Source: Rheinheimera sp. SA_1 (GTDB taxonomy: Bacteria; Pseudomonadota; Gammaproteobacteria; Enterobacterales; Alteromonadaceae). From it: a stretch of DNA of 64,000 nucleotides. Under the pieces are notes generated by a model that was given only the letters and a program-made list of their open reading frames with translations, was not told the origin of the DNA and made no database searches. Position 1 is the first letter of the stretch; each line of letters starts with the position of its first letter. Shown piece by piece: positions 1 through 27,386 of the stretch. Both the position numbers and the translations under genes were made by a program. The stretch covers positions 992,001 through 1,056,000 of the forward strand of contig NZ_LXWK01000011.1 of the NCBI RefSeq assembly GCF_001669775.1, written 5' to 3'.

Positions 1-3000
1 AATTGTCGGAACACCAACTCTGAACCAGCAACCGGGGCAGCTGCCAGCAAAGTAGGTAGATCCTGTGCCGCTACTAAAGCAACAGATTCGATCCCAGCTG
101 TATCATTGGCCGTTAGCTGCGCTAACAGCAACTGATAACTTTCAGCCAGCCTAATGATTGTCTGTTCGGTAAACAAGTCCGTATCAAACGCCCAGTACAG
201 AGACAACGCCCCGTTTGTTTCCTCAATCATCAGGTGTAGGTCAAACTTGCTGTCCAGATGTTGTCGTTTGACCGGTTCAAGCTTCAAAGCTGGTAGTTCG
301 ATACTACCCAGATCGTTATTTTGTAGCACAAACATAATCTGAAACAATGGATTATGGCTGTTTGTTCGTGCGGGATTCAGCTCCTCCACTAACAGATCAA
401 ATGGCAAATCCTGATGCGTGAAAGCATCCAGAATCATTTTTTTATTTTGTTGCAGAAAATCGGTAAATGCCGGATCGCCATTCAAATCACTGCGTAACAC
501 GACGCTGTTGACAAAAAAGCCAATCAACGACTCTAAATCCTGATGCTCACGCCCTGAGACCGCAGTACCAATCACCACATCAGTTTGATTACTGTACCGA
601 CCAATCAAGATGGCAAATACCGATTGCAAATACATAAATAAGCTGACGTTGTGCTTGAGACATTGGGCTTGGATCTGCCCAGTCAGACCGACCTCTAACC
701 TTTGCTGCCAGGCTTTTCCACAAAAACGTCGCTGCGCTGGTCTGACTTTATCAAGCGGCAGATTATGCAACTGTGGCATAAATTGCAGCTGTTTGCGCCA
801 GAACTGCACACTGTCATTGACCTGAGCACCACTGAGCCAGTGGGTTTGCCATAATGCAAAATCGGCATACTGGACTGGCAAAGGTGCTAATGGTTGTATC
901 TGGTCACCGGCAAAGTGCTGGTACAGAGCGCCGAACTCTCGTAGCAGGATCCCCATCGACCAGCCATCCGAAATGACATGGTGCATATTAAACAGCAATA
1001 CTGAACACTGTTCAGCGCACCGAATCAATTTAAATCGAATCAGTAACTCGTGCTGCAAATCAAACACATGACGCGATTCCTGATCCAGCAACGACATAAT
1101 CCGTTGCTGCTGGCTCGTTTCGTCGTCGTGCCTCAAATCAAACTGCTCTAACGGCAAGGCCACCTGTGCCCGGATCAATTGCCACGGCTGCCCACCCTCC
1201 TCATAAAAACCGGTTCGAAGCGCTTCGTGCCTTTCCAGCAAAGCGTCCAGCGCCAGATACAGGGCTTGTTCATCAAGCTGGCCACGTATGGTAAAGCCCC
1301 CTGGCATATTGTATTCACTACTACCTTGACTGTAACGGTCAAGAAACCACAAGCGTCGTTGTGCGTACGATAATGGCAGTTGTTCTGGCCGATCCATCAC
1401 TTTCAAATCGATTGCAATGCGCCGGTGTGCCTGCATAATAAACGATGCCAAGGCCTCAATGGTCGGCTGTTCAAAGATGAGCCGCAATGGCAACTCAACC
1501 TGCCATGTCTGGCGTACCGCACTGATCAAACGAATAGCAATCAGAGAATGGCCACCAAGCTCAAAAAAGTTATCCTGTATCCCCACTTGCCCGACCTGAA
1601 GTAACTTCTGCCACAGTTGACAGAGCTGCTGTTGCATCGGGTCCCTCGGTGCGACATAACAGCGCTGGCTGGCAGCAGTTACGTCGAGTGATAGCAGCGC
1701 TTTTTGATCAACTTTACCATTGGCAGTTAGTGGCAATTGTTTTAGCATCACAACCGCTGTTGGGATCATGTAATCAGGTAACTCCCCAGCTAAGGCTGTT
1801 TTTACCGCAGAGTTGATATTTTGAGAGTTAATGTCATGTTGGCTGGCTATTGCCACAATAAAGGCCGCTAACTGACGATGCTCAGCATGCCCCACCACAA
1901 GCACTATCGCTTCCTCCACCCAAGCTAACTGATTTAAACGCGCTTCGATTTCACCAAGCTCAATACGAAATCCTCGCAGCTTCACCTGATGATCAACCCT
2001 ACCAATAAACTCGATAAGACCATCTGCTAAATAACGGCCAATATCCCCAGTTTTATATAAACGACCTAATCTATGGTGTTGGATAAACCGGGCTGACGTT
2101 TGTTGTTGATCACAACAATAACCACGGGCAACGCCCAATCCACCTATATACAATTCGCCACTGACGCCCGGTGGGACTAGTTGACCAACAGCGTTAAGAA
2201 TGTAAAACGCCTGCCCTGACATAGGCTTGCCATATGGAACGCTCTTTAAATGAGCAGGATCGGTCACTATCGGGTAATGGATCGACCAGATAGATCCTTC
2301 GGTCGCACCACCCAAACTATGTACCTGACTGTTGGGAAAAACTTGCCATAAGCGGCGAGGTAACGTCGGAGCAATCCAATCACCACTCATCCAGATATGC
2401 CGTAAGGCTGAAGTACAATTTCGCCCTAGTAATTCCAGTTGCTCAGCTAACATCGAAGCGGAAGCAGGTACTGAGTTCCACAGGCTAATTTGATGTTGTT
2501 CAATCAGTGCCAGCCAATGGGCCGGATCCGATGCCATAGCGGGCTCCGGGAAAACAACTGTTCCGCCGGCAGCCAACAACCCGAATAAATCATAAACAGA
2601 TAGATCAAAACTCAATGCAGAGACAGCTAATACCTTGTCATTGGCGGTGATCGCGAACCGCTGGTTCATATCGAGTAAGGTATTTACAACGGCATGGTGT
2701 TCGATTTCAACCCCTTTAGGTTCGCCGGTTGAGCCTGAAGTGAAAATAACATAAGCCAGATTCTCAGGTCGTTGCAACGGCTGGTAGCTCACTGCATCTG
2801 GTACCACGTCAGAGAGCTGCAACAGAGCCTGCTGGATGAGATCACTGATGTCTAATTGGTTGATCTCAGCAGACGGTAGTTGATCTTCAGGCCGGCATAC
2901 CAACACAAGTCGACTGCCTGATTTTTGGTAAATATGCTGACACCGTTGGGTTGGCCAATACACTTCCAGCGGCAGGTAAGCTGCACCTGCCATCATCACA

Positions 3001-6000
3001 GCCAGAGTTGCAATCAGTTGATAACGCCCTTTCGGGATCCGGACACAAATCAGTTGCTCTGGACAGACCGACTCAGCACGTAACTTCTGAGTAACCGCCA
3101 TCGCTGCCTGATACACTTGCGCATAGGTCAAACAGCCTTGCGCATCTATCAACGCCTGTTGTTGTGGCGCAGCAACGACCTGCCGAATAAAAAGCTGCTC
3201 GACAGTTTCTGTCGCACGTTGATCATGTAAATCAGGGTTAAACTCCTTGAGTAGCTGAATTTGCTGTGCGGCAGGTAACAGAGGCAGCGCCAGTATCAAC
3301 TGTTCGGGCTGCTCGGTCACAGCGGCTAACAGACAGGCAAAATGAGTCGTCATTTGTTCGATTGTCGACGCCTCAAAAATATCCGCGTTGTACTCCCAGG
3401 CAAAATTGAGCTGTTGTTCAATTTGGTCAACATGCAGAATCATGTCGAACTTGGACGTAACCTGCTGTGCCAAATAAGGTCGGATCGCCAAATCGCTGAG
3501 CTCAATGGCAGAGCGTTCATTGTTGTCCATCGATAACATGACTTGAAACAGCGGCGCATGACTGGCCGTTCGAACTGGGTCTAACGCTTTTAATACCTGC
3601 TGAAATGGGACATCTTGATGATGCAAAGCATCCAGAGTCACTTGTTTGACTTGTTGCAAATACTGGCTGAAAGTGAGCTGTCCATCACACTGAGTACGAA
3701 GTACCAGTGTATTCATGAAAAAACCAATCATTGATTGCAACGCCGGGGCCTGACGGTTCGCCACCGGAACACCGATAACTACATCCTGCTCATTGGAATA
3801 ACGCGACAACAACAACGAAAAAGCCGCATGTATTACCATAAACAAAGTAACATCTTGCCGCAGGGTTAAAGTTGTTAACCCTGCGATGACCGCCGGATCC
3901 ACCTTGAAACTGACTTTTCCGCCGCGGTAACTCTGTTGTGCAGGCCGTGGTTTGTCCGTAGGTAAACTGTGTACCTGGGGTAAATCACACAGTTGCCGCT
4001 GCCAGTAGAGCAGTTGGTGCGCATGTTTTTGTTGTGCGTTTGCGGATTGCGACCACTGCGCATAGTCCACGTAATGCAATGTCGGAGCAGCTAAGCCAGC
4101 AGGTAGTCCACTTAGCTGCGACTGATAAAGCGCAGCAAATTCCCGCACCAGCAATGCCACGGACCAGCCGTCACAGGCAATGTGGTGTACACTTAGCAGC
4201 AACACAGCATGCTCAGACGCTAATTTATACAACACTGCTCTGAGCATCAGATCCTCAGCCAGATTAAAACAAACAACACCGTGCTCAGCCAGCAAACGTT
4301 CGAGCCGATCCTTCTGTCCATTTGGCTCTGCAGATAGGTCTACTTGCTGCAATGCAACACACCGCCCCGGATTTACCCGTTGCTGTACGACACCATCTTG
4401 TTCAAAATAAGTTGTGCGTAATATTTCATGTCGTTCTACCAAAATGGTTAGTGCTGCAGCAGCAAGCTCAGGCCTGAACTCTCCGCACAGTTCAAGACTG
4501 AGATTGATATTATATTCAGGACTACCAGCTTGCATCCGATCAACAAACCACAGCTGCTCCTGTTGAGCGGACAAATTGTGATGCGCTTGCACACGAGGGA
4601 CGGCTTTAATTTCAATCGCGTCAGCGTCCCTTTGCCGTTCGCCGATATAATCAGCGAGCTCACGAATGCTGGAGTGGTTAAACATAGCGGCAACCGGTAT
4701 TTCATATCCTAAAAGGTAACGAATCTCGGCTAACAGCCGAACCGCTAATAATGAATGCCCGCCAGCACGGAAGAAATTAGCCGTCACACTCAACTTATCC
4801 GCGGTTACCTTCAGTAACTTCGCCCAGATCTGGACTAACTGCTGTTCTAGCTCGGATGCTGGCGCAACGTATTGTTGCTGCAGCGCCATGAAATCAGGGG
4901 CTGGTAGAGCATTGCGATCAATTTTTCCATTCACTGTCATCGGCAATTGTGGCAACGGAACTATTGCTGCTGGCATCATATAGTCTGGTAACCGAACCTG
5001 GAGTTCCTGCCGAACGAATTCCAGCAGCTCAGCAGATGTTGTACTGATATCTGGTACCCACACCACATAAGCGACAATTTGCAAAGTACCGTCGCTTGTA
5101 GCTCGGGTCACCACTACGTTCGAACTAATGACCGCAAGTTGATTCAATTGGGCCGAGATTTCGCCCAACTCAATTCGATATCCCCGGATCTTAACCTGTT
5201 CATCAGCACGTCCCATATACTCCAACTGACCATCAGCCATGTATCGCACTAAATCGCCTGTGCGGTACAAGCGCGCGTTAGGAGTTGCACTGAACGGGTC
5301 AGTTACAAAACGCTCAGCAGTTAAAGCTGGTCGATACAGATAACCCCGAGCCAGGCCAGCTCCGCCAATATACAATTCACCGACTGCAAACTCAGGCACC
5401 AGTTGCTGCTGCGCATCCAACAAGTAAAATGTCATGTCTGCCAGTTTCTGACCAATGACCGAACGACCTTGCTGATTTGGGTCAACCGGCCAATAGGTCG
5501 CATGCACTGTTGTTTCGGTAATACCGTACATGTTGACAAACCGTGTCAACGTCTCTGGGTACCGGCGATGCCAATTCTGCACCACAGAGGATTCAAAAGC
5601 CTCACCACCAAAAATGATGTAACGCAGCGTCAGCAAATTCTGCGCTGAAGTCAGTAAAGCATCACTAAGTGCCTTGAACGCACTGGGTGTCTGGTTAAGT
5701 ACAGTAACTTTTCGTTGCTGACACAGAGCTATCACCTGCTGAGTATCTCGCGTTAAGCCGGGTTCCGGCACCACCAAATGTCCACCATAAAACAAGGCTC
5801 CCCACAACTCCCACACAGTAAAATCGAAGCATATGGAATGGAACAGTAACCAGGTGTCCTGTTCACTAAAGTCAAACAAGGATTCAGTGCAACTGAATAA
5901 TCGGCGGACATTACGGTGGGTTTGCATCACTCCTTTGGGTTGCCCGGTAGAACCTGAAGTATAAATAAGATAAGCCAGATGATCCGGAGTCAGGGCCTGC

Positions 6001-8051
6001 GACGCCATGACAGTGGTCACAACAGCATTACTCCGCAATTCTTGACAACAATTGCCAAGCTGCACCATCAGCAGTTCAGCCTCTGTCAATGACTGCAACC
6101 TCGTGTGCAGAACCTGTTCGACCAGCAACAACCGCACTTGACTATCCTGCAACATATAGGCGATGCGATCATCCGGATGATCAGGCTCTAAAGGGACATA
6201 AGCCCCGCCCGCCTGCAAAATAGCGAGAATCGTTATGATTAGCTCAGCCGATTTTGGCAAACAAACCCCAACCAATACGTCCGGACCAACCCCCTTACTT
6301 TGCAGATAATGAGCCAGCAGTTCGACATGTTGTGCCAGCTCGGCATACGTCAGCGTCTGCTCTGCAAAACTCAGTGCTATCCGCTGCGGAAACAGTTTGG
6401 CAGCCTGCGCAAATTTACTGTGAATAAAACCATCATCATCATCTGGCAAACAGCTCTGCTGCACCGGATTATAGTGCTCCAGCAAACGTTGCTGCTCCTG
6501 CTCGCTCAACATCGGTAAATCAGTCAGCGCTGCCGCAGGATTGGCCAATACCGCAGTAAACAAGTTGCTCAGATGCTGATTGAATTGACCGACTCGTTCA
6601 GCACTAAATAGTTCGGTATTGTAAATCCAGTAAAATTGCAAACCATCATCGTTGAGGTTGATATAGATATCTAAATCGAATTTGGCCAGTCGCGCATCAT
6701 CCCTCACCAACGATAATTCAACCCCTGGTAACTGGAAACGCTGCTGCTGATTTGGTTGGAAAGTTGGCTCAGTAGTAAATGAAAACATAATTTGAAACAA
6801 TGGGGTAATTGCAGCATCCCGCGGTACCTGCAACCGCTCAACCAAAGCATCAAAAGGAATATCCTGATGATCTTGCGCGTCCAGATTAATCTGTCTGACA
6901 TGCTGTAACAACTCGGTAAAGGTGTTTTGCCGGTGCTGTGTTCTCAATACCAGTGTATTGGCAAAAAAACCAACCAGCGGCTCAAGTTCTTTTAGCCTTC
7001 GGTTCGCTATAGGAGTGCCCAGTAGTACATCCTGCCCAAAGCTGTGCCGTGATAACATCAGTGCCAACACTGCATGACAGAACATAAACGCCGTTACCTG
7101 TTGTCCTTTGGCAACATCCCGCAACAAACCGGCACTTTTCGCTGGTAACCCTCCCCGAACGACAGCAGCCTTATGAGTCATGCGTGCTGGTCTGGGATAA
7201 TCCAAAGGGATGCCATGAGTTAATGGTGCATCTGCGAGCTGTTGCGACCAGTAAGCGGTTTGTTGCATCAGCTCCTGCTCGTTCAGCCAGCGACGCTGCC
7301 ACAAAACGTAGTCAGCGTAACGAAATGGCAGTACCGGCAACGTGACGACTAACCCTGAGATTAGTTGCTGATAAATCTGACAAAATTCTCGCAACAGCAA
7401 TTCAAGCGACCAGCCATCGCAAGCGATATGATGGATATTCAGTAATAAAACACCATGAGAACGACCGTCTGCAAGTGCCGAGAGCTCAATACAAGTGGCT
7501 CGCAACATTAAATCATCGGCCAGATTAAAGCTACGATTCATCTCATCGCGCAACAGCTGCGATAAACGCTGCTCTTGGATGTCCGGCGACAGTTCGCTCA
7601 AATTACAGTGGCTTAACTGAAACACAAAACTATCCCGAACAAACTGTTCCGGCTCATCACCACGCCGATAGCCAGTTCGCAAGATGTCATGCCGCTTGAT
7701 TAACAACATCAATGCCTGCTCTGCCAGCCCGACATTTATCTGACCTGTGAAACGAACTGGCAGCGGATTGTTATACTCCGGACTGCCTTGCTGGATTTGA
7801 TCCACTAGCCACAAGCGTTGCTGGGCAAATGACAGCGGGAACACATTGTTTCCATCAGAATACGGTTGTAACTGCTCACGCTGCCGATTGCTGAGCCACT
7901 GGATGATTTCGGATTTTCGCTCTTGTAGCTCCGCACGAATTGCCGACGTCACCAATCCTGGCGGCGCATTGACTTTCAACTGACCGTCGCCGGCCAGTTG
8001 CAGGCTGATTTGTTGCGCTACACACCATCGTATAAAATCTTCAAGGTTCAC
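1..8051 (-). CDS. NRPS-C: TubC-C-A(Thr)-T-C-A(Cys-like)-T-C..., partial at left edge
   Basis: Non-ribosomal peptide synthetase, open from a GTG at 8051 to the window edge (about 2683 codons seen). The GTG overlaps the stop of NRPS-B (GTGA), so the two are translationally coupled. The N-terminus (about residues 1-55) resembles a TubC docking domain. C1 has HHIACDG near residue 210. A1 has the TSGSTG core near 697 and pocket residues D-F-W-N-I-G-M-V-H, the textbook Thr code. T1 has GGHS with its serine at codon 1100. C2 (HHIACDG near 1292) is an ordinary condensation domain, not a heterocyclization domain. A2 has pocket D-L-Y-N-W-S-L-I-W, one residue from the Cys code, and the LGGATE signature common in Cys-activating domains. 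T2 serine is at codon 2169. C3 has HHVISDG near 2360. The frame was checked at start, T1 and T2. At least one more module must lie to the left. Confidence 0.93.
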   Translation of the reverse strand, partial: MNLEDFIRWCVAQQISLQLAGDGQLKVNAPPGLVTSAIRAELQERKSEIIQWLSNRQREQLQPYSDGNNVFPLSFAQQRLWLVDQIQQGSPEYNNPLPVRFTGQINVGLAEQALMLLIKRHDILRTGYRRGDEPEQFVRDSFVFQLSHCNLSELSPDIQEQRLSQLLRDEMNRSFNLADDLMLRATCIELSALADGRSHGVLLLNIHHIACDGWSLELLLREFCQIYQQLISGLVVTLPVLPFRYADYVLWQRRWLNEQELMQQTAYWSQQLADAPLTHGIPLDYPRPARMTHKAAVVRGGLPAKSAGLLRDVAKGQQVTAFMFCHAVLALMLSRHSFGQDVLLGTPIANRRLKELEPLVGFFANTLVLRTQHRQNTFTELLQHVRQINLDAQDHQDIPFDALVERLQVPRDAAITPLFQIMFSFTTEPTFQPNQQQRFQLPGVELSLVRDDARLAKFDLDIYINLNDDGLQFYWIYNTELFSAERVGQFNQHLSNLFTAVLANPAAALTDLPMLSEQEQQRLLEHYNPVQQSCLPDDDDGFIHSKFAQAAKLFPQRIALSFAEQTLTYAELAQHVELLAHYLQSKGVGPDVLVGVCLPKSAELIITILAILQAGGAYVPLEPDHPDDRIAYMLQDSQVRLLLVEQVLHTRLQSLTEAELLMVQLGNCCQELRSNAVVTTVMASQALTPDHLAYLIYTSGSTGQPKGVMQTHRNVRRLFSCTESLFDFSEQDTWLLFHSICFDFTVWELWGALFYGGHLVVPEPGLTRDTQQVIALCQQRKVTVLNQTPSAFKALSDALLTSAQNLLTLRYIIFGGEAFESSVVQNWHRRYPETLTRFVNMYGITETTVHATYWPVDPNQQGRSVIGQKLADMTFYLLDAQQQLVPEFAVGELYIGGAGLARGYLYRPALTAERFVTDPFSATPNARLYRTGDLVRYMADGQLEYMGRADEQVKIRGYRIELGEISAQLNQLAVISSNVVVTRATSDGTLQIVAYVVWVPDISTTSAELLEFVRQELQVRLPDYMMPAAIVPLPQLPMTVNGKIDRNALPAPDFMALQQQYVAPASELEQQLVQIWAKLLKVTADKLSVTANFFRAGGHSLLAVRLLAEIRYLLGYEIPVAAMFNHSSIRELADYIGERQRDADAIEIKAVPRVQAHHNLSAQQEQLWFVDRMQAGSPEYNINLSLELCGEFRPELAAAALTILVERHEILRTTYFEQDGVVQQRVNPGRCVALQQVDLSAEPNGQKDRLERLLAEHGVVCFNLAEDLMLRAVLYKLASEHAVLLLSVHHIACDGWSVALLVREFAALYQSQLSGLPAGLAAPTLHYVDYAQWSQSANAQQKHAHQLLYWQRQLCDLPQVHSLPTDKPRPAQQSYRGGKVSFKVDPAVIAGLTTLTLRQDVTLFMVIHAAFSLLLSRYSNEQDVVIGVPVANRQAPALQSMIGFFMNTLVLRTQCDGQLTFSQYLQQVKQVTLDALHHQDVPFQQVLKALDPVRTASHAPLFQVMLSMDNNERSAIELSDLAIRPYLAQQVTSKFDMILHVDQIEQQLNFAWEYNADIFEASTIEQMTTHFACLLAAVTEQPEQLILALPLLPAAQQIQLLKEFNPDLHDQRATETVEQLFIRQVVAAPQQQALIDAQGCLTYAQVYQAAMAVTQKLRAESVCPEQLICVRIPKGRYQLIATLAVMMAGAAYLPLEVYWPTQRCQHIYQKSGSRLVLVCRPEDQLPSAEINQLDISDLIQQALLQLSDVVPDAVSYQPLQRPENLAYVIFTSGSTGEPKGVEIEHHAVVNTLLDMNQRFAITANDKVLAVSALSFDLSVYDLFGLLAAGGTVVFPEPAMASDPAHWLALIEQHQISLWNSVPASASMLAEQLELLGRNCTSALRHIWMSGDWIAPTLPRRLWQVFPNSQVHSLGGATEGSIWSIHYPIVTDPAHLKSVPYGKPMSGQAFYILNAVGQLVPPGVSGELYIGGLGVARGYCCDQQQTSARFIQHHRLGRLYKTGDIGRYLADGLIEFIGRVDHQVKLRGFRIELGEIEARLNQLAWVEEAIVLVVGHAEHRQLAAFIVAIASQHDINSQNINSAVKTALAGELPDYMIPTAVVMLKQLPLTANGKVDQKALLSLDVTAASQRCYVAPRDPMQQQLCQLWQKLLQVGQVGIQDNFFELGGHSLIAIRLISAVRQTWQVELPLRLIFEQPTIEALASFIMQAHRRIAIDLKVMDRPEQLPLSYAQRRLWFLDRYSQGSSEYNMPGGFTIRGQLDEQALYLALDALLERHEALRTGFYEEGGQPWQLIRAQVALPLEQFDLRHDDETSQQQRIMSLLDQESRHVFDLQHELLIRFKLIRCAEQCSVLLFNMHHVISDGWSMGILLREFGALYQHFAGDQIQPLAPLPVQYADFALWQTHWLSGAQVNDSVQFWRKQLQFMPQLHNLPLDKVRPAQRRFCGKAWQQRLEVGLTGQIQAQCLKHNVSLFMYLQSVFAILIGRYSNQTDVVIGTAVSGREHQDLESLIGFFVNSVVLRSDLNGDPAFTDFLQQNKKMILDAFTHQDLPFDLLVEELNPARTNSHNPLFQIMFVLQNNDLGSIELPALKLEPVKRQHLDSKFDLHLMIEETNGALSLYWAFDTDLFTEQTIIRLAESYQLLLAQLTANDTAGIESVALVAAQDLPTLLAAAPVAGSELVFRQ

Positions 8052-11000
8052 AGAATAAATTCCTCACTCTGGCCGACATCTGTCTGACTCAGCAGGTTAA
8101 ATGTGTCGCCGCCCGCAGGCAGCTGGCGTTGGTCGATAATGACAGCCAGCGACTCAATGTTGGCATGTTCAAAGACTTCGCGAATGGTTAATCTCAGCCC
8201 AAACTGCTCTTGTAAGGCAGCCAGTAAACGCGTCAGCAATATGGAGTGACCACCCAGATCAAAAAAGCTGCTTTGGCAGTTAATCTGTGCCGCAGGCACC
8301 GCCAGTAACTCTGCCCAAATCAACACTAATGCATGCTCGGTTTCAGATTGCGGCCCTCGAAAATTCTGACTAACTGCTAAATTCTGGCTGGATGGCAATG
8401 CTGCTTTATTCAGCTTGCCATTGAGCGTCAGCGGCAGTTTTTCCAGAACCATAAAGGCAGCCGGAATCATATAACTGGGCAGTTGTTGCGCTAAAAAAGT
8501 TTTGCATTGGTTAATTAACTCAGCCTCTGCAATAGGCCAGCTCGCCGGCTGAATATACGCAACCAATCGAGCGCCTTCCTGCGCAAGTTGCTCCAGCAAT
8601 ACAACACTAGTGCTCACTGAAGGATGTTTGCTCAACTGCATGGCAATTTCATCGGGTTCGATTCGGTGCCCGCGCAATTTTATTTGTGCATCAAGCCGGC
8701 CAAGAAACTGCAGCTGACCATCTTGCATCCACCGTACTTTGTCCCCGGTACGATACCAGCAACTCTGAGTATTCGGACATTGCACAAAACGCTGACGAGT
8801 CAACTCAGGCTGATTCAGATATCCTGCTGCCACACCAGGACCACCTATATATAACTCACCAGCAGCACCCGGCGGTAATAGCTGCGCATCCTGACCCAAC
8901 ACCTTTAACTGATAACCTGGTAAAGGTTTACCTAGAGGGATAGCGGCAACATGAGACTGGACTTGATATGAGGTCGCCCATACCGTCGTTTCTGTCGGTC
9001 CGTACATATTGTGAATTTGAGCAGATGTTAGCTGCAGCAACTGCTCAGCCAACATCGGTGGGAATACTTCCCCGCCAATATAAAGCTGTTGCAGACTTTG
9101 TAATTGGTGCTTTGCAGCAAGGCCACTCAGATGCATTTGAGCAAAAGACGGAGTACATTGCAGATGACTGACTCTGTTCGTGACTATTGCCTCTGCAACC
9201 GACTGCGATTGGTCCGGCGACCAGAGCACCAGGGTCAGGCCAAACGCCAAACTGCCAAAAATCTCCAGTACTGAGATATCAAATGCCACACCTGTTACCG
9301 CCAGCCAGGTGCCGCCACCTTGCAGCTGTGCAGCCATGGTCTGCAGAAAATGAACAGCGCTGTGATGACTAACCATCACTCCTTTCGGTTGCCCGGTAGA
9401 GCCCGAAGTATAAAGAATGTAGGCCAATGATTGGCCGTCGACGACAGGCATCTGTTGAGCAGCGCTCATAGCTACGCCACTGATAACTTGTTCGACAACC
9501 GCGTCATTCAGCGTCAGACTAACTTGACTATCCTGCCGCATATAATCAAGCCGGTGTTGCGGATAACCTGGCTCTAATGGTAGATAGCAGGCGCCGGCTT
9601 TTAATACTCCCAGCAGCGCAACAACCAGCCATTCGGTCCTACCCATTTCAACAGCGACTACCTGACCAGCGCTCACGCCTTGCGCCTGCAGATAGCAGGC
9701 AACCTGGTCTGACAAACCATCCAATTGTAAGTAAGTCAGCTGGCGGCCTTCACATTGCAAAGCTATCTTATCAGGTTGTCGTTGCACCGAATTTGTAAAC
9801 AATTGATGTAAAGTCTGTTCTTGGATCCCTTGAACTGCTTGCCTGTCAGCTGGTTTCAGCCCACCCCACTGCTGCAATAATGTCTCATCAGACGCTTGCA
9901 TCACAGGATAAACAGCCAAAGCGCGAGCCGGATCTGCCAATACCGCCTGCAACAACACTGCATAACTAGCTGCAAGCCGAGCCAAAGAAGACGCGTCAAA
10001 CAAGGCAGTACTGAAGTTCCAATCCAGCTGATAGCCATCGGCAGTTACAGTGATCGCCAGCTCCAAATCAGTTTTCACAGTTTTTGCTTTCAGACTGAGC
10101 TCGGCAAGTTGCAACCCGGAAAGGGACAGCTCGGCTTTACCGTGACTGTGAAACGAAAACATCAGTTGGAACAATGGAGAGTAAGCCAAATTACGTTCCG
10201 GCTGCACGCGTTCAACCACCATTTCAAATGGGACTTCCTGATGCTGAAATACATCCAGAACCATGGTTTTGGTTTCAGCTAGCAACTGACTGAAGGTGTG
10301 CCCCGCCTGCAGCCGACTGCGCATCACAACAGTATTAGCAAAATACCCCACCAACGGTTCAATTACCGATTGGTGCCGGTTTGCCACCGGACACCCAATC
10401 AGTACATCCTGCTCATCACTGTAGCGGGCTATCAGTAGCGCAAACACGGAATAACACAACATAAATGGCGTTACATCGAACTGTTGACAGCAATGATGGA
10501 TCTGAGAAACCACTTCTGCCGACAACTTCGTACTGACACAATCGCCGGTAAAACTTTGTTGTGGTGGTCGAGGACGGTCAGTACTGAGTCGGTGTATAGC
10601 CGGTGCCTCGGCCAGATGGGAGCGCCAGAATCCCAGCTGCTGTTCAAACAAGTCCTGATTTGCCTGTTGCCAATACGCATAATCAGAATACTGTACAGTC
10701 AGTGACGGTAAGGACAGCGGGTCACCTGCCAGCAAATCGCGATAACAACTGGCAAGCTCCTGCACTATGATCCCCAGTGACAAACCATCACAGGCAATAT
10801 GATGCACAATCAATAGCAGGACATGCCTTTGCTCAGCCAGTTTAACTAAGGTGACCCGGATCGGGATCTCCGTAGTCAGAACAAAAGGTAACAACTGCTC
10901 TGACACGAAAAGGTCTGCAAGTTGTTGCTCACTGGGTTGGTCACTCCAGTCCAGCTCACACATAGGCATCTGCGCCTGCGGCTGGATAATCTGACGGGTG

Positions 11001-18800: not shown

Positions 18801-21800
18801 TCAAACGCCAGATGGTGAATGCAGAACCAAAGCACATACTCAACCTGACTGCCGTATTGCCGACAGATTAGACTGGCACGCAATGGCAGATCATCCGCCA
18901 AATTAAATGACTTTGTCGATTTTTGCTGTAGCAGCTGCAAAAAATCAGACTCAGCCATCTCAGGAATCTGTTCAACAACGAGCTGAAAAGACTCCGCAGC
19001 TAAAGACTGGAGCAGGACATCTGATTCGGTTGTACAATAGACGGACCGGAGGATCTCATGCCGCTGTAACAACATGACCAAAGCCGTCTCTAATAGCGCA
19101 GGCTCCACGGTACCGGTTAGCCGCAATGCAAAAGGCATGTGGTAATTAGCCGAAGAACCCTGCACCAGATGTAGCAACCATAATCGTTGTTGTAATAACG
19201 AAATCGGCGCGGGTTCACTCGATGCAATTGTCGGCTTTATTTGTGGTAATTGGCAGCGTTCGCTATTGTCAACAAACGTCGCCAATTGCCTTAAATTCTG
19301 GCTACCGAAGATCTGATGCAAACTCAGGTTTATCCCATAAGTTTGATTAATCTGGCTGACCAACTCAACAGCTGACAACGAATGTCCACCATTGCCAAAA
19401 AATGAAAGTTGCATATTTATCGATGCCGGCTCCACTCGCAAGACCATACCGACCAATGCAGCCAGTTGGACTTCAATTGGGCTCTCCGGCAGTCCGGCTG
19501 TTGGGATCTGTTGTGATAACTCAAGGGCAGGTAGGGCTTTTTTATTAATCTTCCCATTCGGCGTCAGTGGCAACCCAGCCAAGAAAATCACATGGTCCGG
19601 TACCATATGCGCAGGCAGCTGTGCTGCAAGTTGAGCTTTGACACTTTCAGCGTCTTGCTGCCGGGCAACCAGATAGGCTAATAACCGCTGATCTGCGACA
19701 ACGACCACTGCTTCGGTCACTCCGCTCAAACCGAGCAGCGTGTGTTCAATCTCCCCTGGTTCAATCCGAAATCCTCTTAGCTTAATCTGCTCATCGACCC
19801 GGCCCAGATAAGCCAGCGATCCATCCTGTAGGTAACGAACTAAATCACCGGTCCGATAACAAATTCCGCTGTTGGCATCAAGCCGGACAAACTTCTCCGC
19901 AGTCAGCGCCGGACGCCCTTGATAACCGGCAGCCACACCAGCCCCACCCAGGTAGAGTTCGCCAATGCTCCCCAACGGTACCGGTTTCAGTTGCGCTGAC
20001 AGCACATAAGCCTGGCTGCCAGCAATGACTTTACCAATCTCGGGCACCCTCGAAATACCTGTGTTGAAACATGCCCAGGTTGAGTAGGTAGTATCTTCCG
20101 ACGGGCCATATAAATTGTAGACGAACTGGCAAGATGTCGACTGCAGCAGGTCATTCACTATAGCCGCTGATAAAGGTTCACCAGCCAAATTAACGGTATT
20201 GACTGATTTAGGTACAGCATCAGCCCGCAGCAAAGCACGGATAGCCGACGGCACCGTATTGATCAGACTCACATCAACTTGCTGTTCCAGTAACGACAGT
20301 GGATTGCGAACCAGTACACATTGAAAACCAAAACACAACGGAACAAATAGTTCAAACATCGACAAGTCAAAATTTAACGAGGTGCTCACCAAAACCGACC
20401 TGAGTTGATGATCACTAAAAGTTTGCCGTGCCCAGTACAACAAAGACAACAGGTTTCGTTGTCTAATCAACACGCCTTTGGGCTGTCCGGTCGATCCCGA
20501 AGTGTAAATACAGTACGCAAGCTGTTCTGCATGCATCCCGGCCAGCTGCGGGTTGTGTTTAGGAAATGCTGTCAACTCCGGATGTTGATCTACCACAATG
20601 ACCTGTGTTGCGCCAAATGGATTGGGCAGACCAACCTGTGTTAATACCACGCCAACCTTGCAGTCACTCACGATGTAGGTCAGACGTTGTTCCGGATATT
20701 CAGGATCCAACGCCACAAAGGGTATCCCGGATTTCATTGCAGCCAACACAGCAACAACCATTTCTACAGAGCGATGACAATGTATGCCAACAAACTGCCC
20801 CGGTTGCCACGATAGCTCCAGCAATCGGTGGGCTAACTGGTTTGCCTGAACGTTGAGTGCCGAATAGGTCAGTTGCTGCTTTGCGCAAATCAGTGCGGTC
20901 TTGGCTGGTTCTGCCAGAGCCTGTTGTTCAAAAAGCTGATGGGGCAATATCTGTGTGTCAAACAACAATTCAGGTCCTTCAGACCAGTGCTGCAATATCT
21001 GTTGTTCCTTCGGTGGGATGACCTCGTAACTGTTTATCGAAGCAGTCGGCTGTTCCAACAGTTGGTTGAATAGCAGGTCCAATCGACCCAGCATCAATTC
21101 AATCTCAGTTGCAGAGAAATATAATAGATTAAAATCAACCTGAATTTCGGCCTGTTGAGTATCCCCATACTCCCAAATAGTCAGCATCAACGGGTTTTGT
21201 TGATGCTGATGACTCAGATACACAAGATGAGCTGGTTGCCCATCAAAATCAAGCTGACTGTCAAGCCGTAGATAGTTGAAGCCAATATCATACAGCCATT
21301 CACGCCCGGTACCTTTAACAAATTCACGGAACATTTCACCAACCGGATACCGCTGATGTTTGTAATTTTGTCGACTTTTCTGCGCAATCTGCCTGCAAAG
21401 TTCGTTCAAGGTAGCGTCAGCATCAAGTTCCAATAATACCGGTATCACGCTGACAAAAACACCAAGACTCATTTTGTCCATTTTGCTGCTACGGTTATGC
21501 ACCGGGCAACCGAATAACAATTGATGCTGTTGGTAGCAACGGCTGAAATATATGGCTACCAAGGCATGATACAACTGAGCCACTGGAACCTGCAGTTGTT
21601 TGGCTAAACCTGCAAACGCTAAGCTACGTTTCGCAGAGATTTTCAGTATCTGACGCTGGCTCGGACTAAAAGCAGTGTTCTGTTGACGAAAATGTTGGAC
21701 CTGAAACAATTGTTCCGGGAGATGCTGCAAAGTTTGTTGCCAGTACAACCTGTCTACTTCGTATTTGTCACTGTGATTGTAAGCAATATTCTGTTGTACT

Positions 21801-22324
21801 ATGTCGGGCCAGCATTTCCCCACTGTTACCACTGATGCGTCCTGATAATAGTTACTGAGTCTGCTCGCCCAATTCGCAAAACCCCAACCATCCATACAAA
21901 GATGGTGCGCTTTACCAACATAATACCATCGGTCAACACTGAGTTTTAACAGATAAGCATCAAACAGTGGAACCTCATCCAGTGGCATTGTGCGCTGAAA
22001 ATGGGCACTGAGCCATTGGTCCGCTTGAAGCAACGGATCTTCAGCCTGACTGAAATCCAGCACCGGCAACCTTGTATCGCGCACAGAGCTGATAAACTGA
22101 GTCACTCCTTGAGACGACAACCGCAATCGAATCCCAAACACATCACATTGCTCGATCAGTTGCTGATGCGCCCGCTGTAATCTGTCGAGATCAATAGCAG
22201 GCAAAGCAATATAACCGCCGACATTATAAAGCGGGAGCTCGACAAAATGTAATTGATCAAAATAGATATCTTGCTGCACCGCTGTAAGTGGCAGGCATTG
22301 TTGTGACATCGCCGGTGTATTCAC
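12845..22324 (-). CDS. NRPS-A: three-module initiating synthetase, C-A(Ala)-T-C-A(Ala)-T-C-A(X)-T
   Basis: A 3159-residue NRPS and the first synthetase of the operon. It has no docking domain and begins directly with a condensation domain (HHLCMDGWG near 141), suggesting a starter C domain that acylates the first residue. Module 1: TSGSTG near 605, pocket D-L-F-N-N-A-L-T-Y (a recorded Ala code), and T domain FFGNGGHS near 978, where the usual E-L is replaced by G-N. Module 2: C with HHLAFDG near 1175, A with TSGSTG near 1651 and the same Ala pocket, T near 2031. Module 3: C with HHLVADG near 2230; A with TSGSTG near 2706 but a deviant pocket I-R-W-V-F-S-L-S-D, YGSTE instead of YGPTE, and no alpha-amine-binding Asp; T near 3098. 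The tail ends DSLKKILI and may dock to NRPS-B. No epimerization or thioesterase domain is present. Confidence 0.95.
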   Translation of the reverse strand: MNTPAMSQQCLPLTAVQQDIYFDQLHFVELPLYNVGGYIALPAIDLDRLQRAHQQLIEQCDVFGIRLRLSSQGVTQFISSVRDTRLPVLDFSQAEDPLLQADQWLSAHFQRTMPLDEVPLFDAYLLKLSVDRWYYVGKAHHLCMDGWGFANWASRLSNYYQDASVVTVGKCWPDIVQQNIAYNHSDKYEVDRLYWQQTLQHLPEQLFQVQHFRQQNTAFSPSQRQILKISAKRSLAFAGLAKQLQVPVAQLYHALVAIYFSRCYQQHQLLFGCPVHNRSSKMDKMSLGVFVSVIPVLLELDADATLNELCRQIAQKSRQNYKHQRYPVGEMFREFVKGTGREWLYDIGFNYLRLDSQLDFDGQPAHLVYLSHQHQQNPLMLTIWEYGDTQQAEIQVDFNLLYFSATEIELMLGRLDLLFNQLLEQPTASINSYEVIPPKEQQILQHWSEGPELLFDTQILPHQLFEQQALAEPAKTALICAKQQLTYSALNVQANQLAHRLLELSWQPGQFVGIHCHRSVEMVVAVLAAMKSGIPFVALDPEYPEQRLTYIVSDCKVGVVLTQVGLPNPFGATQVIVVDQHPELTAFPKHNPQLAGMHAEQLAYCIYTSGSTGQPKGVLIRQRNLLSLLYWARQTFSDHQLRSVLVSTSLNFDLSMFELFVPLCFGFQCVLVRNPLSLLEQQVDVSLINTVPSAIRALLRADAVPKSVNTVNLAGEPLSAAIVNDLLQSTSCQFVYNLYGPSEDTTYSTWACFNTGISRVPEIGKVIAGSQAYVLSAQLKPVPLGSIGELYLGGAGVAAGYQGRPALTAEKFVRLDANSGICYRTGDLVRYLQDGSLAYLGRVDEQIKLRGFRIEPGEIEHTLLGLSGVTEAVVVVADQRLLAYLVARQQDAESVKAQLAAQLPAHMVPDHVIFLAGLPLTPNGKINKKALPALELSQQIPTAGLPESPIEVQLAALVGMVLRVEPASINMQLSFFGNGGHSLSAVELVSQINQTYGINLSLHQIFGSQNLRQLATFVDNSERCQLPQIKPTIASSEPAPISLLQQRLWLLHLVQGSSANYHMPFALRLTGTVEPALLETALVMLLQRHEILRSVYCTTESDVLLQSLAAESFQLVVEQIPEMAESDFLQLLQQKSTKSFNLADDLPLRASLICRQYGSQVEYVLWFCIHHLAFDGQSVPLLLRELEQIWQALLLKQIPQLAVPELQYHDFARWQHHQLASGALNHQRDYWQQQLAGAPLRHSLPVNVTSLEKPVKVGLFKQILPAALLGQLRHAARLQQMTVFMQLHAALALSFSRAGNCQDVLIATPISNRTLPQLAELIGFFVNTLVLRVNTAQPTIGQFLQHVRDVHLSAQQHQELPFDLVVEACQVQRDSHYLPLSQILLTYLEKSAVDVLSSGGSLSWYPLEQRLLKYELEVEITEADGQASICWLYDSSIFTAGQIEQLSQQYHLILEELTAAQLSGASNILSAPLHRISGIPESERHFLLQTLNHNSFEYDRTATIPALFAAQVSSRPQHIALQVQGVDWHFSDLDQMANALATRLIHLGVNRGDLIGICCQRDITMVVSVLAVLKAGAGYVPVDPAYPVSRQQHIVTASQIKLLLTNQGLAEMLQVEQRLVLDAADMVKERQVQAPLLTVGAQDIAYVIYTSGSTGQPKGVVIRHSNAVAMLHWAARQYSASELKQVLASTSLSFDLSVFELFLPLCFGYQCVLVDNALALLTIQPAVTLINTVPSAIRTLYEQKALPNTVKVVNLAGEPLKAELLNQLLASGIGKVCNLYGPTEDTTYSTCAVFEQPVSGSPVIGQVIGNSQAYILSKSQELLPFGVAGELYLGGDGVAAGYLGQSALTDERFIANPYGKGMLYRTGDLVRYADRQGNLAFLGRLDDQIKIRGYRLELGEIEHVILQLPAVSEACVLASGDGEHRQLRAFVVARVGQADSEVQRQLCVHLTEQLPEYMQPSTIQLLAAMPLTPNGKTDKAALSRLSESSGSAIVEPATLQEAQLRTIWAKVLDHPLATCSVTGHFFQLGGHSLLAVRLSSEISRSLHLDCTVQMIFQYPTIRLLAAQLAAQPTAAQLIPVSADIDEPCPLSFAQQRIWFLTQLAPLDDAFNMSAALTIFGKFKPEWVPSALTALVQRQQILQYRFVLHQGEPLLQRHADTQVPFCHVDLSSMAPEQQQQEVQRLRQEHAAYTFNSATEMLMRLTYLQLASPNSASDSVERPAGILLLTMHHLVADGGSIPLLLQEFLSAYQALVKCEVQQLPPLPVSYADFCRWQRARFGHAYLSSQTAFWQQLLADAPPVHRLPLAGPRHTQPSRGAQLKQELPSALCRELEAQLHSAGVTLFMLLQAALALHIGRLSHEYDVVIGAPVDGRQHHQLQPLVGLLLNTTVYRTEFADNPAWSLLLERTREQHIRSLPYQDVPFEAIVEKINPVRDLYQSPIFQILLNYNNTELPTLLLDDCRLQLQAELPQSSKYDLTLYVSGDTAKGIQLCWVYNEALFAHETLSFYASEFVHLLTQLCQAPQTPVLQFGWLNRPDWPVPQQNVAEDYQIWQLLELQAQQRPAQPALSDGDHQYSYRELACQVNQLANYLHDHGFSAGQRAAILTQRHAQRIISILAVLKAGGAYVPLSQELPESRLIYMLNNAAPTLLLTDIASQEACPLLCSSFKGQVVCIDAPAVHIQLTQTADNFQAVARSAMDEAHIIFTSGSTGLPKGVVGTCAATMNRVQWMLTAYPYQLAEPVAHITSMAFIRGVWELLVPLCGGAHLILCDRDVVRDTTRLWHWLKHHQIRRLVTAPSLMKALTDVACTLQEQQQMPLHYWFVSGEPLLQQHANAVLNCFPELRLFNLYGSTEVMSDVLVKEIYLDLQQHWVTLGLPITGADVCILADDGLPAPDHVVGEIAVLGCALANGYLSETANSPFIDSSAGRVYRTGDLGLRRSDGDISCLGRRDDQIKIRGYRVEPGEIRALLIRHPAVQNCYVRPWPRGEQLLLIAYLVVAETAQTQATIREQLVEQVRASLPFYMQLSAYIFVDALPLRPNGKVDRQALPEPDLIAVQTERVPPANETERQLCLLWGELLQLEPTELGVTSCFFELGGHSLLITQLQHQLSERFGLVLSYQELFANRTVRYQATRISRLKQMEDVVNPRTVTDSLKKILI

Positions 22325-22355: not shown

Positions 22356-24047
22356 TTACTGACAAGATGCCAGCGCAACCGACTTATCGCGTCGGATAGA
22401 AATCAGCCGACCACCGTCCATTTTCAGCAGTTGATCGGCTAAAGGGAAATATTTGTCATCATGGCTGATAACAACCACCGCTTTGCCGGAAGCTTTTAGA
22501 TCCGGCAGTATCTGTCGATAAAAAATCTCTTTGAACTCCGGATCTTGATCAGCTGCCCACTCGTCAAACAGATACAGGTTTTTATCATCCAGATAAGCAA
22601 CCACTAGAGCAAGACGTTTGCGCTGTCCATCAGACAATGCTGTGGTGGAAAATTTACCATCAGTTACTTTGACCAAATGCGCCAGTTTTAAATCTACTAA
22701 ATACTGTTGTAGTTTTTGTTCTTTCTCACGCGTGAGATCACTCAATAGCCGATCGAACAAATAATAGTTAGAAAAAATCGCGCTGATCTCATGGCGAAAA
22801 CTGTTCAGTTGCTGTGCCGCTACCTTCTGATTACCAAATACAATATCACCTGTTGTGGCTTGATAGTGCAAAGTAATTAACTTACTCAAAGTCGATTTAC
22901 CAGACCCATTACCGCCAACAATAAAGGTAATTTCTCCACGATGTATCTCCAAATCAATCGGTCCAACAGCAAAACCAGCCTCTTCACCATAAGATGGGTA
23001 CCTGTAACATACTGAGACAAACTGCAGGGTTTGCCACTCTGCCACTGGTACTATCGTTGTATCACAACCTTCCGTAGGAAGCTCCCCCAACAACCGATGC
23101 AACTTTCGGTACGATACGCCAGCTACTGTAAGCCCAGGAATTGAGTTCAGGACGATCGCAATAGGGGTTGTAATGTACAACAGAGCCATGACAATACTTA
23201 CCAGTTCGTGGCTGGCGATAGTGTAATGATTTAATGCAATAAAACTGACAACACCAATCACAAAAAAACTCAGTAAATCCCCAAGGCTGACAGTTGCTCT
23301 GGTCACCGCATGCCCGACACTTTCAGTTCTGAGTAGCTTTTCTTCTTGCGCTTTTAATAACAGATTGTGGTAAAACGTCGATTTATGCTGGTCCAACTTC
23401 AGTTCTTTGGCACCGTAGATTAAGCCTTTTATTGATTCCTGTAGTTGATCGTTTAACTCCCGATTTTTCTCAAACAAACGCCTACCAAAAATCATTGGTA
23501 ACTGATAGACCAGAATACCAGCCACCACGGATAACACCACCAACTTAAATACCGAAGCATTCAGATACAACAGAAATCCGAGCATGCCAATTAAAGTCAC
23601 CGAATTGACGAATATTGCGGGGATTAACCGTGCCCCCAGCACTATCCTTGGCACATCCAAATTGACGGCGCCAATCAGTCGTGCCGAACCTGCTTTTTCC
23701 AACGCTACGACTGACGTCGCACTAATACGCTGATAAAACGACATCCTGAAATTACGTGCAACTCTCGCCCCGACCTGTAACAGCATGATTTCAGACAGAC
23801 TCCGAGTCAGCAAAACCACAATGCAGGCAAACAGATATAACATTGCCATTTTAGGATCAGACACTTCGATATCCCCCGGTAACAACAATGTTCTGTTCAG
23901 CTCCGGAAAAGCCGGATCTGCAGGCTCTATACTGCTGATAACCAGTGGAATCAAGGCCGAGTAAAAAATGCCTGCCAGAATACCGAGTAGCACTGAAAAA
24001 AAGACTTTATAAGGCGCTGCGGCCGCAAACTGACGGATTAGCCCCAC
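22356..24047 (-). CDS. Cyclic-peptide export ABC transporter (fused permease and ATPase)
   Basis: A 563-residue half-transporter of the SyrD/PvdE type that exports lipopeptide or siderophore precursors across the inner membrane. Residues about 1-300 carry six hydrophobic segments. The C-terminal ATPase has Walker A GGNGSGKST, an LSDGQRKR signature, Walker B NLYLFDEWAADQDP and the switch His in VVISHDD. The DEWAADQDP variant is typical of this exporter family. The start is a GTG at 24047, right after the acylase stop (TAA-T-GTG). NRPS-A follows after 31 bases. Its place between the acylase and the synthetases indicates that the NRPS product, or its acylated precursor, leaves the cytoplasm through this protein. 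Confidence 0.93.
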   Translation of the reverse strand: MGLIRQFAAAAPYKVFFSVLLGILAGIFYSALIPLVISSIEPADPAFPELNRTLLLPGDIEVSDPKMAMLYLFACIVVLLTRSLSEIMLLQVGARVARNFRMSFYQRISATSVVALEKAGSARLIGAVNLDVPRIVLGARLIPAIFVNSVTLIGMLGFLLYLNASVFKLVVLSVVAGILVYQLPMIFGRRLFEKNRELNDQLQESIKGLIYGAKELKLDQHKSTFYHNLLLKAQEEKLLRTESVGHAVTRATVSLGDLLSFFVIGVVSFIALNHYTIASHELVSIVMALLYITTPIAIVLNSIPGLTVAGVSYRKLHRLLGELPTEGCDTTIVPVAEWQTLQFVSVCYRYPSYGEEAGFAVGPIDLEIHRGEITFIVGGNGSGKSTLSKLITLHYQATTGDIVFGNQKVAAQQLNSFRHEISAIFSNYYLFDRLLSDLTREKEQKLQQYLVDLKLAHLVKVTDGKFSTTALSDGQRKRLALVVAYLDDKNLYLFDEWAADQDPEFKEIFYRQILPDLKASGKAVVVISHDDKYFPLADQLLKMDGGRLISIRRDKSVALASCQ

Positions 24048-24048
24048 A

Positions 24049-26469: not shown

Positions 26470-26563
26470 ACCATTCCCTCATTTGATCTGACATTTCTAG
26501 CCAGACAGGTATTTAAACGCCTGTGTGTTGCCTGAATCTGCTACAGATTGAGCAAGCGTAAAG

Positions 26564-26585
26564 GTTACCGCAGCACCACGGTAAC
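26564..26585. repeat. Inverted repeat between thioesterase and acylase genes
   Basis: GTTACCG and CGGTAAC form a 7-bp stem with an 8-base loop in the only sizeable gap inside the NRPS operon. On the minus strand it is not followed by a T run, so it is not a standard terminator. It could slow transcription or protect RNA ends. On the plus strand it is followed by a short T-rich stretch. Confidence 0.4.
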
Positions 26586-26597
26586 TTGTTTTTATAC

Positions 26598-27386
26598 TTA
26601 TACTGCGACGCGCTTATCGTGACTATGGGCTTGGATTGCGCCAGACAACCAATTTTGCAAAAGCTGTTTTATCAGAGCTAACACGACATTTTGATGACTT
26701 TCAATAAAAAAATGTCCGCCAGCAAAGGTATGAACCTCTGCCGGTTTGGTGAAGAACTGCCCCCAATGCGACAAAGATGAAAGAGGCACGTCGTTGTCGT
26801 CCCCCCCCCCCATTACATGTAACTGACAAGGAAATGATGCAGTGCCAGTAAAACTGTAGGTATCTGCAATTTGGAAATCAGCACGTAGTAACGGCAATAA
26901 ATATGCCATCAGTTCCTCATTAGCAAGTATTTCAGCCGGCGTCCCGTTCAGTCGTTGCAGCTCCGCAATAAAATCTGCTTCTGGTAAGCTATAAATCGGT
27001 GTTTTAACCCTGATCGTATCAGGGCTGTTACTCCCTGACGCGATAAACATTTCCGGTAACCGTTGCTTCTGCTGCTGTAACTGATATAGCAGCTCGAATG
27101 CAACACGGCTGCCAAGGCTATGTCCCAACAGCACATAAGGGCGATCGAGCAACGGAAGAATTTGTAGCAATAAAGCACCAACCAATTCTGGCATGTTGTT
27201 ATATGCCGGCGATTCCATAAAGGAACCACGGCCAGGCGGCTGGACTGCAATCAGTTCAATTCCCGGTGGCAACTGAGTGGCCCATGGCAAATAAGTCCTG
27301 ACACCGCCTCCAGCATAAGGAAAACAAATCAATCTGAGGTGCGGCGAATGCACTTTGTGGGGTACAAAAAACCAATGACTACTCAT
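26598..27386 (-). CDS. Type II (editing) thioesterase of the NRPS operon
   Basis: A 262-residue alpha/beta hydrolase of the GrsT/SrfA-D type. It begins with the typical FFVPHK...LRLICFPYAGGG segment. The nucleophile is Ser90 in GHSLGS. A late Asp-rich loop (GGGDDNDV, about 193-200) should hold the acid, and the catalytic His is about 225 in AGGHFFI. Such enzymes hydrolyse stalled or wrong acyl groups from carrier proteins and keep NRPS lines working. It is the first gene of the operon on the minus strand. Unusual: the codons for M-G-G-G just before the Asp loop form an uninterrupted run of 11 G (plus-strand C run 26801-26811). A one-base slip would destroy the Asp and His region. The reading frame is intact with the 11 bases given. 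Confidence 0.93.
   Translation of the reverse strand: MSSHWFFVPHKVHSPHLRLICFPYAGGGVRTYLPWATQLPPGIELIAVQPPGRGSFMESPAYNNMPELVGALLLQILPLLDRPYVLLGHSLGSRVAFELLYQLQQQKQRLPEMFIASGSNSPDTIRVKTPIYSLPEADFIAELQRLNGTPAEILANEELMAYLLPLLRADFQIADTYSFTGTASFPCQLHVMGGGDDNDVPLSSLSHWGQFFTKPAEVHTFAGGHFFIESHQNVVLALIKQLLQNWLSGAIQAHSHDKRVAV
26801..26811. repeat. Eleven-base C homopolymer inside the thioesterase gene
   Basis: C11 on the plus strand is G11 in the thioesterase coding strand. It lies at residues 192-196, between the nucleophile and the catalytic acid/His. Tracts of this length are prone to slipped-strand changes and to sequencing error. Confidence 0.9.

What the first reader, a model, noticed from the sequence alone, without database searches (positions are those of the whole stretch)
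1..27386. Acylated-prodrug NRPS pathway with periplasmic trimming
Seen: one minus-strand operon with a type II thioesterase, an Ntn acylase with an export segment, a SyrD/PvdE-like exporter and at least three NRPS proteins, the first starting with a bare C domain. Known: PvdQ removes a fatty acid from the exported pyoverdine precursor. Inference: the product is acyl-Ala-Ala-X-Gly-Thr-Cys-... whose acyl group is removed after export. The predicted order with X third matches no product I can recall.
Basis: partly seen in the sequence, partly recalled or inferred. Interest (0 to 1): 0.85.

Follow-up and report, generated by a model that had tools for sequence, protein, structure and literature searches.

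The report
Acyl-capped peptide pathway, trimmed after export
This stretch starts an 11-module assembly line that very likely builds a peptide under a fatty-acid cap, pumps it out of the cytoplasm and cuts the cap off there, as pyoverdine producers do, and a companion enzyme missing from the family libraries may modify an unusual acidic residue in it.

Summary
About 55 kb on the minus strand (C1:964677-1019386) encode a type II thioesterase, an Ntn acylase, a SyrD/PvdE-type exporter, six NRPS proteins (11 modules, methyltransferase, epimerase, thioesterase), a MacA/MacB-type exporter, a PaaK-like and a SufS-like protein and two ATP-grasp-like proteins. The first C domain is starter-type: 22 of 23 cassette first C domains group with RzmA-Cs, 0 of 174 others. 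In 295 family genomes, 30 of 32 acylase hits (E<=1e-90) are followed directly by the same exporter. This supports acylation, export and periplasmic deacylation as in pyoverdine; no acylated precursor has been shown. I infer that X is an acidic residue joined through its side chain and that P0001 uses its free carboxylate. New variant of a known kind.

The parts
26598..27386 (-). Type II thioesterase (262 aa), first gene of the operon
   Evidence: PF00975 136.5 bits
24049..26469 (-). Ntn acylase P0002 (806 aa), N-terminal hydrophobic segment, nucleophile Ser247 (codon 25729-25731)
   Evidence: PF01804 693 bits; residue 247 aligns to residue 1 of penicillin acylase and PvdQ beta chains; PvdQ equivalog model only 73 bits, cut-off 950
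22356..24047 (-). SyrD/PvdE-type ABC exporter (563 aa)
   Evidence: TIGR01194 cyclic peptide export ABC transporter 359.5 bits, cut-off 286.2; such a gene follows the acylase in 30 of 32 loci
12845..22324 (-). NRPS A (3159 aa): Cs-A(Ala)-T, C-A(Ala)-T, C-A(X)-T
   Evidence: Domains; codes
20990..22300 (-). Starter-type C domain of NRPS A, HHLCMDG
   Evidence: Best PDB match RzmA-Cs; tree
13145..14692 (-). Third A domain, code IRWVFSLSD: the usual Asp235 is Ile, position 236 is Arg
   Evidence: aligned to LgrA; same code in 4 related clusters
11413..12834 (-). P0001, 473 aa, ATP-grasp-like protein of a family without Pfam model
   Evidence: No family over cut-off; profile of 17 relatives matches ligase Cp1B (E 1.1e-4) and, weakly (E 0.89), YgiC with R, D, E, N aligned
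8048..11398 (-). NRPS B (1116 aa): docking-C-A(Gly)-T
   Evidence: code DILQYGMVW
1..8051 (-). NRPS C, cut at the window edge; whole protein 3686 aa (C1:988991-1000051): C-A(Thr)-T, C-A(Cys)-T, C-A(Thr)-MT-T
   Evidence: Left of the window: D, E, F, PaaK-like, SufS-like, MacA-like/ATPase/permease, second ATP-grasp-like gene

Best explanation
A 16-gene operon makes an acyl-capped 11-residue peptide. A starter C domain puts a fatty acyl group on Ala1. Eleven modules then build acyl-Ala-Ala-X-Gly-Thr-Cys-N-MeThr-Cys-Ser-Asp?-Y, the last residue being epimerised, and a thioesterase releases it. The SyrD/PvdE-type exporter moves it to the periplasm, where the Ntn acylase removes the cap, and the MacA/MacB-type system exports the mature peptide. 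X is probably an acidic residue joined through its side-chain carboxylate, and the ATP-grasp-like ligase P0001 (cytoplasmic, as no export segment was seen by eye) condenses its free alpha-carboxylate with an amine or hydroxyl, inside or outside the peptide. Shown by sequence: genes, domains, codes, starter-C type, conserved adjacency. Inferred: acylation, export route, place and timing of deacylation, chemistry of X and P0001. The confidence given is for the acylate-export-deacylate route; the X/P0001 step stands at about 0.3.
For: First C: RzmA-Cs 104 bits and EntF 79 at the top, whereas two internal C domains match Txo1/Txo2 best (179, 266 bits) with RzmA-Cs at 30 and 58; tree split holding RzmA-Cs and 22 of 23 cassette first C domains, 0 of 174 others, support 0.982. 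Acylase at E<=1e-90: 32 hits in 23 of 295 genomes, own included; 30 of 32 followed on the same strand by the exporter, as in 4 of 4 further named contigs including Massilia and Pseudoduganella. Nucleophile Ser247. MacA/MacB-type genes in the same operon and beside several other cassettes. X: in 9 of 9 clusters with a P0001-type gene after (or one gene after) the first NRPS, the adjoining A code is IRWVFSLSD (5) or DPR[HN][FC][VC][LI]RA (4). The DPR-type domain of G043 has as top NCBIfam match TIGR03443, L-aminoadipate-semialdehyde dehydrogenase, 363.5 bits (below its whole-protein cut-off of 1030); DPRHLALLAK is aminoadipate-specific in print (PMC12283262, passages); VinN takes 3-methylaspartate as a beta-amino acid (PMC11253843, passages). 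All 9 of 295 genomes with P0001-type genes are among the 23 with this acylase.
Against: No metabolite data. The acylase is far below the PvdQ model cut-off (73 of 950 bits) and its best solved relative is a D-succinylase, so the acyl chain could be short. Two of 32 acylase hits lack the exporter (G234, G330), and one cassette first C domain (G181b) falls outside the starter split. Ala-Ala is not universal: module 1 of G153 and module 2 of G039 read otherwise. Our own third A domain has no TIGR03443 match at 1e-40; its substrate is assigned by analogy only. The beta-amino-acid A domains described in the passages read of PMC11253843 keep Asp235 (VinN, the TycA variant), which ours has lost, and the same review says McyG, with Val there, selects hydrophobic substrates. 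P0001 reaches no family cut-off and its single-sequence model failed (pLDDT 33).
Confidence: 0.72

Rival explanations
1. The final product is the lipopeptide itself; the acylase inactivates it for self-protection or recycling.
For: Glidonins: GdnD, a PvdQ-like acylase, deacylates the lipopeptide, and acylated glidonins inhibit the producer; Tem25 sits inside the telomycin cluster (PMC10587159, passages).
Against: GdnD lies about 1 Mb from its cluster, while here acylase and exporter are neighbours in 30 of 32 loci. A separate MacA/MacB-type exporter in the operon fits a two-step export.
Confidence: 0.17
2. The acylase mainly degrades acyl-homoserine lactones or other signals, and its place is incidental.
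For: PvdQ has this second activity (PMC6206403, passages).
Against: Other acylases are common: 65 of 98 relatives have a match at E<=0.001. Of five loci at about 27-31% identity that I read (L051, L052, G234, G330, G254), only G254 has the exporter beside it, so the pairing marks this subfamily.
Confidence: 0.05
3. P0001 makes the free building block X (or another precursor), not a change on the assembled peptide.
For: Same neighbourhood data; Cp1B acts on a free dicarboxylic acid (PMC12568646, passages).
Against: Two different A-code types go with the same enzyme family, easier if the shared feature is a free alpha-carboxylate of X; this is inference.
Confidence: 0.3
4. The product is a siderophore like pyoverdine.
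For: Same acylate-export-deacylate-export gene kinds.
Against: No assigned code points to hydroxyornithine (X and Y are unassigned), none of the 16 genes is a hydroxylase by the scans run, and none of 54 TonB receptor hits lies inside or within 10 kb of the operon (nearest C1:952469-953860).
Confidence: 0.08

Closest known systems
Pyoverdine maturation (PvdL, PvdE, PvdQ, PvdRT-OpmQ)
   Same: Acylated NRPS product, PvdE-type inner-membrane exporter, periplasmic Ntn acylase, second export system (PMC6206403, passages); that PvdRT is MacA/MacB-like is recalled
   Different: Bare starter C instead of PvdL's own acyl-activating start (recalled), different peptide, no chromophore tailoring genes among the 16, acylase not a PvdQ equivalog, ATP-grasp-like genes added
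Glidonin pathway (GdnD)
   Same: Starter-C lipopeptide deacylated by a PvdQ-like acylase (PMC10587159, passages)
   Different: GdnD is encoded far from the cluster and proposed as detoxification
ATP-grasp ligases Cp1B (E-64) and YgiC/YjfC
   Same: Profile match to Cp1B and aligned R/D/E/N positions in YgiC
   Different: No shared family over cut-off; Cp1B works in an NRPS-independent pathway (PMC12568646, abstract start and passages)
VinN, and microcystin-type side-chain-linked acidic residues (the latter recalled)
   Same: Activation of a carboxylate other than the alpha-carboxylate of an acidic residue (for ours inferred)
   Different: VinN keeps Asp235, ours does not; here an ATP-grasp-like gene adjoins the module in 9 of 9 clusters

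Membership tests
Penicillin amidase / Ntn acylase family (PF01804) | Family profile and N-terminal Ser nucleophile of the beta chain | tested here: met
   693 bits, cut-off 21.3; Ser247 aligned to beta-chain residue 1
PvdQ equivalog (NF051460) | Curated score 950 | tested here: not met
   73 bits
Cyclic peptide exporter SyrD/PvdE type (TIGR01194) | Curated score 286.2 | tested here: met
   359.5 bits; that SyrD and PvdE belong to this type is recalled
Starter C domain | Groups with a known starter C domain apart from internal C domains | tested here: met
   22 of 23 cassette first C domains with RzmA-Cs, 0 of 174 others, 0.982; one reference only
Pyoverdine pathway | Acylate, export, deacylate, second export gene set | tested here: met
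Pyoverdine pathway | Tailoring to the pyoverdine chromophore and hydroxamate residues | tested here: not met
   No such gene among the 16 of the operon; the rest of the genome was not searched for them
Deacylation of the product after export | Acylated precursor seen in an acylase mutant | not testable with these tools
   needs mass spectrometry
Circularly permuted ATP-grasp ligases | Profile match over curated cut-off | tested here: inconclusive
   Only weak hits: CP_ATPgrasp_2 in 6 of 17 members, CP_ATPgrasp_1 in 2, GSP_synth in 2, best E 0.0078 among these; Cp1B E 1.1e-4
Circularly permuted ATP-grasp ligases | R-x-D ... E-x-N positions | tested here: met
   R121, D123, E135, N137 invariant in 17 of 17 and aligned to YgiC; their catalytic role is recalled
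Aminoadipate-type A domains | DPRH-type code or TIGR03443 profile | tested here: not met
   Ours reads IRWVFSLSD and has no TIGR03443 match at 1e-40; DPR codes are in 4 relatives

The most novel reading that the evidence does not exclude
A so far unnamed family of ATP-grasp ligases works together with NRPS modules that take an acidic residue through its side-chain carboxylate: the module leaves a free alpha-carboxylate in mid-chain and the ligase uses it as a branch or ring-closure point, all under a removable fatty-acid cap.
Probability: 0.3. Interest if true: 0.75.

Novelty: new variant of a known kind. Interest (0 to 1): 0.6.

Why it matters
[quoted passage not shown] An acylase-exporter pair kept in many other NRPS clusters offers test cases for that question. 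The ATP-grasp-like family beside non-canonical modules points to branching or ring closure that code-based product prediction would miss, since the family has no Pfam model.

Tried and rejected
Structure of P0001: single-sequence AlphaFold gave pLDDT 33; no fold search was run.

Idea that the last module's code DAKNISAVN depends on the PaaK-like + SufS-like pair: 3 of 3 clusters with the code have the pair, but 3 of 6 clusters with the pair do not show the code in the parts read (G282b and G120b end at contig ends). Only a one-way link remains.

Papers: five A codes as words (three recalled, two ours) gave no paper. Searches found none; two found the glidonin paper plus one other each (title and abstract start only); one gave 11 papers on Thalassomonas and nonribosomal peptides, 10 listed, seen as listing only; 73, 74 and 87 were used to pick papers to look into. 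Absence in print is limited to these searches of an open-licence library.

Wider search for P0001: 3 of 369 class genomes and 16 of 398 phylum genomes at E<=1e-10, both counts including the window's own. Of the others only G967 matches over the full length in one piece, in the same layout. G512 matches in two pieces and G1017 in part; the stretches read around them show no match to our NRPS proteins. G657 and the remaining weak hits were not read. A second copy in G043 stands away from NRPS genes.

Rows dropped: C-like hits of 300 aa or less before the tree; A domains scoring under 250 or repeated at one place before the table of 193. In that table 16 A domains are non-canonical (position 235 not Asp, or starting DPR); 13 lie within 30 kb of a P0001-type gene, against 67 of 177 canonical ones. 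The clusters are related, so these are not independent. The three others are VDAT[YF]SIAD in the genome's own contig C19. ORFs under 120 aa were not listed in the neighbourhood reading.

Changed on re-checking: the odds of the novel reading went from 0.35 to 0.3, because the beta-amino-acid A domains in the passages read of the review keep Asp235.

Full report
Observation. The window lies at C1:992001-1056000 of a 5.16 Mb genome. The operon runs on to the left: NRPS C is 3686 aa, followed by NRPS D (1163 aa), E (1161 aa) and F (2969 aa, C-A-T-C-A-T-E-TE), a PaaK-like protein, a SufS-like protein with the motif RNGHLCAQP near its C-terminus, a MacA-like adaptor, an ATPase, a MacB-like duplicated permease and a second ATP-grasp-like protein. 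The last C-like domain of F has, besides its G181 counterpart, E domains as nearest neighbours in the tree.

Predicted product. A-domain codes were read with positions anchored on GrsA motifs (the anchors are recalled). They are DLFNNALTY, DLFNNALTY, IRWVFSLSD, DILQYGMVW, DFWNIGMVH, DLYNWSLIW, DFWNCGMVH (with methyltransferase), DLFDLSLIW, DVWHFSLID, DIPRVGHVG, DAKNISAVN. PMC12283262 gives DLYNWSLIWK for Cys, DFWNIGMVHK for Thr and its N-methyl form, and DLTKVGHVGK for Asp/Asn (passages); the Ala, Gly and Ser readings are recalled, and DIPRVGHVG as Asp is by likeness. X and the last code are unassigned. Relative G181 has the same gene order from acylase to permease and also 11 modules: Ala-Ala-X-Gly-Thr-Cys-Thr, one module whose A domain carries an inserted aminotransferase, Ser-Ser, and the same last code.

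Starter C domain. By phmmer the first C domain matches RzmA-Cs (104 bits) and EntF (79 bits) best. The C domain of module 2 and that of NRPS B match Txo1/Txo2 best (179 and 266 bits), with RzmA-Cs at 30 and 58. In a FastTree of 197 C and E domains from these clusters plus RzmA-Cs, one split with support 0.982 holds RzmA-Cs and 22 of 23 cassette first C domains and none of the 174 others, which include three N-terminal C domains that do not follow the exporter. The one cassette domain outside is from G181b. Some of the 23 are near-identical. That RzmA-Cs is a starter domain is recalled; it is the only reference used.

The acylase-exporter pair. In 295 genomes of the family, the own one included, 23 have an acylase match at E<=1e-90, 32 hits in all. 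I read the surroundings of all 32: 30 have the SyrD-like exporter as the next gene on the same strand; G234 and G330 (30-31% identity) do not. In 20 of the 30 the gene after the exporter is an NRPS by BLAST to ours; in the other ten there is a contig end, two genes and then an NRPS, or other genes. Of the seven loci three are contigs already seen; the other four, Alteromonas, Pseudoalteromonas, Pseudoduganella and Massilia, show the pair too (4 of 4). Some clusters (G120b, G141b, G261b, G282b) begin with a longer protein that may carry its own acyl ligase; that was not tested. In one search, 41 acylase sequences other than our own (four loci in it twice, one a fragment, one a distant control) gave a hydrophobic N-terminal stretch in 39 and the nucleophile motif in 37.

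How it most likely works. Acylation on the first module, export by the SyrD/PvdE-type pump, acyl removal in the periplasm and second export by the MacA/MacB-type system follow the published pyoverdine model (PMC6206403, passages; there too PvdE's transport of the precursor is called most likely, not demonstrated in vitro). Each step here is inferred from gene content and conserved order. The main rival is deacylation as protection, as proposed for glidonins.

The new part. The gene after NRPS A (P0001) has no family over cut-off. Seventeen relatives, itself included, align with invariant R121, D123, E135, N137, K363, Q400, R439 and N451, among others. The profile matches Cp1B at E 1.1e-4; the YgiC alignment (E 0.89, weak alone) puts R, D, E and N in register. 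Cp1B is a proven amide-forming ATP-grasp ligase, and YgiC/YjfC are called peptidylpolyamine synthetases there (PMC12568646, passages). P0001-type genes occur in 9 of 295 family genomes, all 9 among the 23 with the acylase. In nine clusters, eight in the family and G967 outside it, such a gene follows the first NRPS. One gene lies between in G054; in G039 two copies are fused; in G017 and G019 only the last module of that NRPS is on the contig, and the cassette is on another contig. The adjoining A code in these nine is IRWVFSLSD in five and DPR[HN][FC][VC][LI]RA in four. In the seven clusters with the whole first NRPS, modules 1 and 2 read Ala-Ala in five; G153 differs in module 1 and G039 in module 2. 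The DPR type resembles TIGR03443 and the published aminoadipate code DPRHLALLAK. In our type Asp235 is Ile and position 236 is Arg; a likeness to a beta-alanine code is recalled. Against this, the published beta-amino-acid A domains in the passages read keep Asp235. I infer a side-chain-linked acidic residue with a free alpha-carboxylate as the substrate of P0001. That step is a hypothesis.

Verdict. The finding is real and its interpretation largely holds as inference. It is a new variant of the pyoverdine-style logic in a conserved cluster family, with an undescribed ligase-like family as the most interesting part.

Noticed in passing
L099:5437-10233 (G181): An NRPS A domain interrupted by a class III aminotransferase (PF00202 at residues 887-1276 of 1598), in the place where our cluster has a Cys module.
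   Followed up: partly
G000:C19:14683-157010 (L019-L027): A second, very large NRPS region of the same genome with proteins up to 7350 aa, a CmlA-type hydroxylase and A codes VDAT[YF]SIAD.
   Followed up: no
G000:C1:970626-973142 (L011): PaaK-like and SufS-like genes as a pair; the pair recurs in 5 relatives' clusters (G181a, G153, G282b, G120b, G141b; in G153 one gene lies between the two). Function unknown; a sulfur-containing group is one guess.
   Followed up: partly
window 28673-30989: Beside the operon, plus strand: an ArsR-like regulator (by eye), a flavin-dependent oxidoreductase (PF13738) and a membrane protein without Pfam match; not obviously part of it.
   Followed up: no
L172 (G054:C20): A second ATP-grasp-like gene beside MacB-type ATPase and permease, adaptor and type II thioesterase genes, a setting like that of our second copy beside the permease.
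   Followed up: partly
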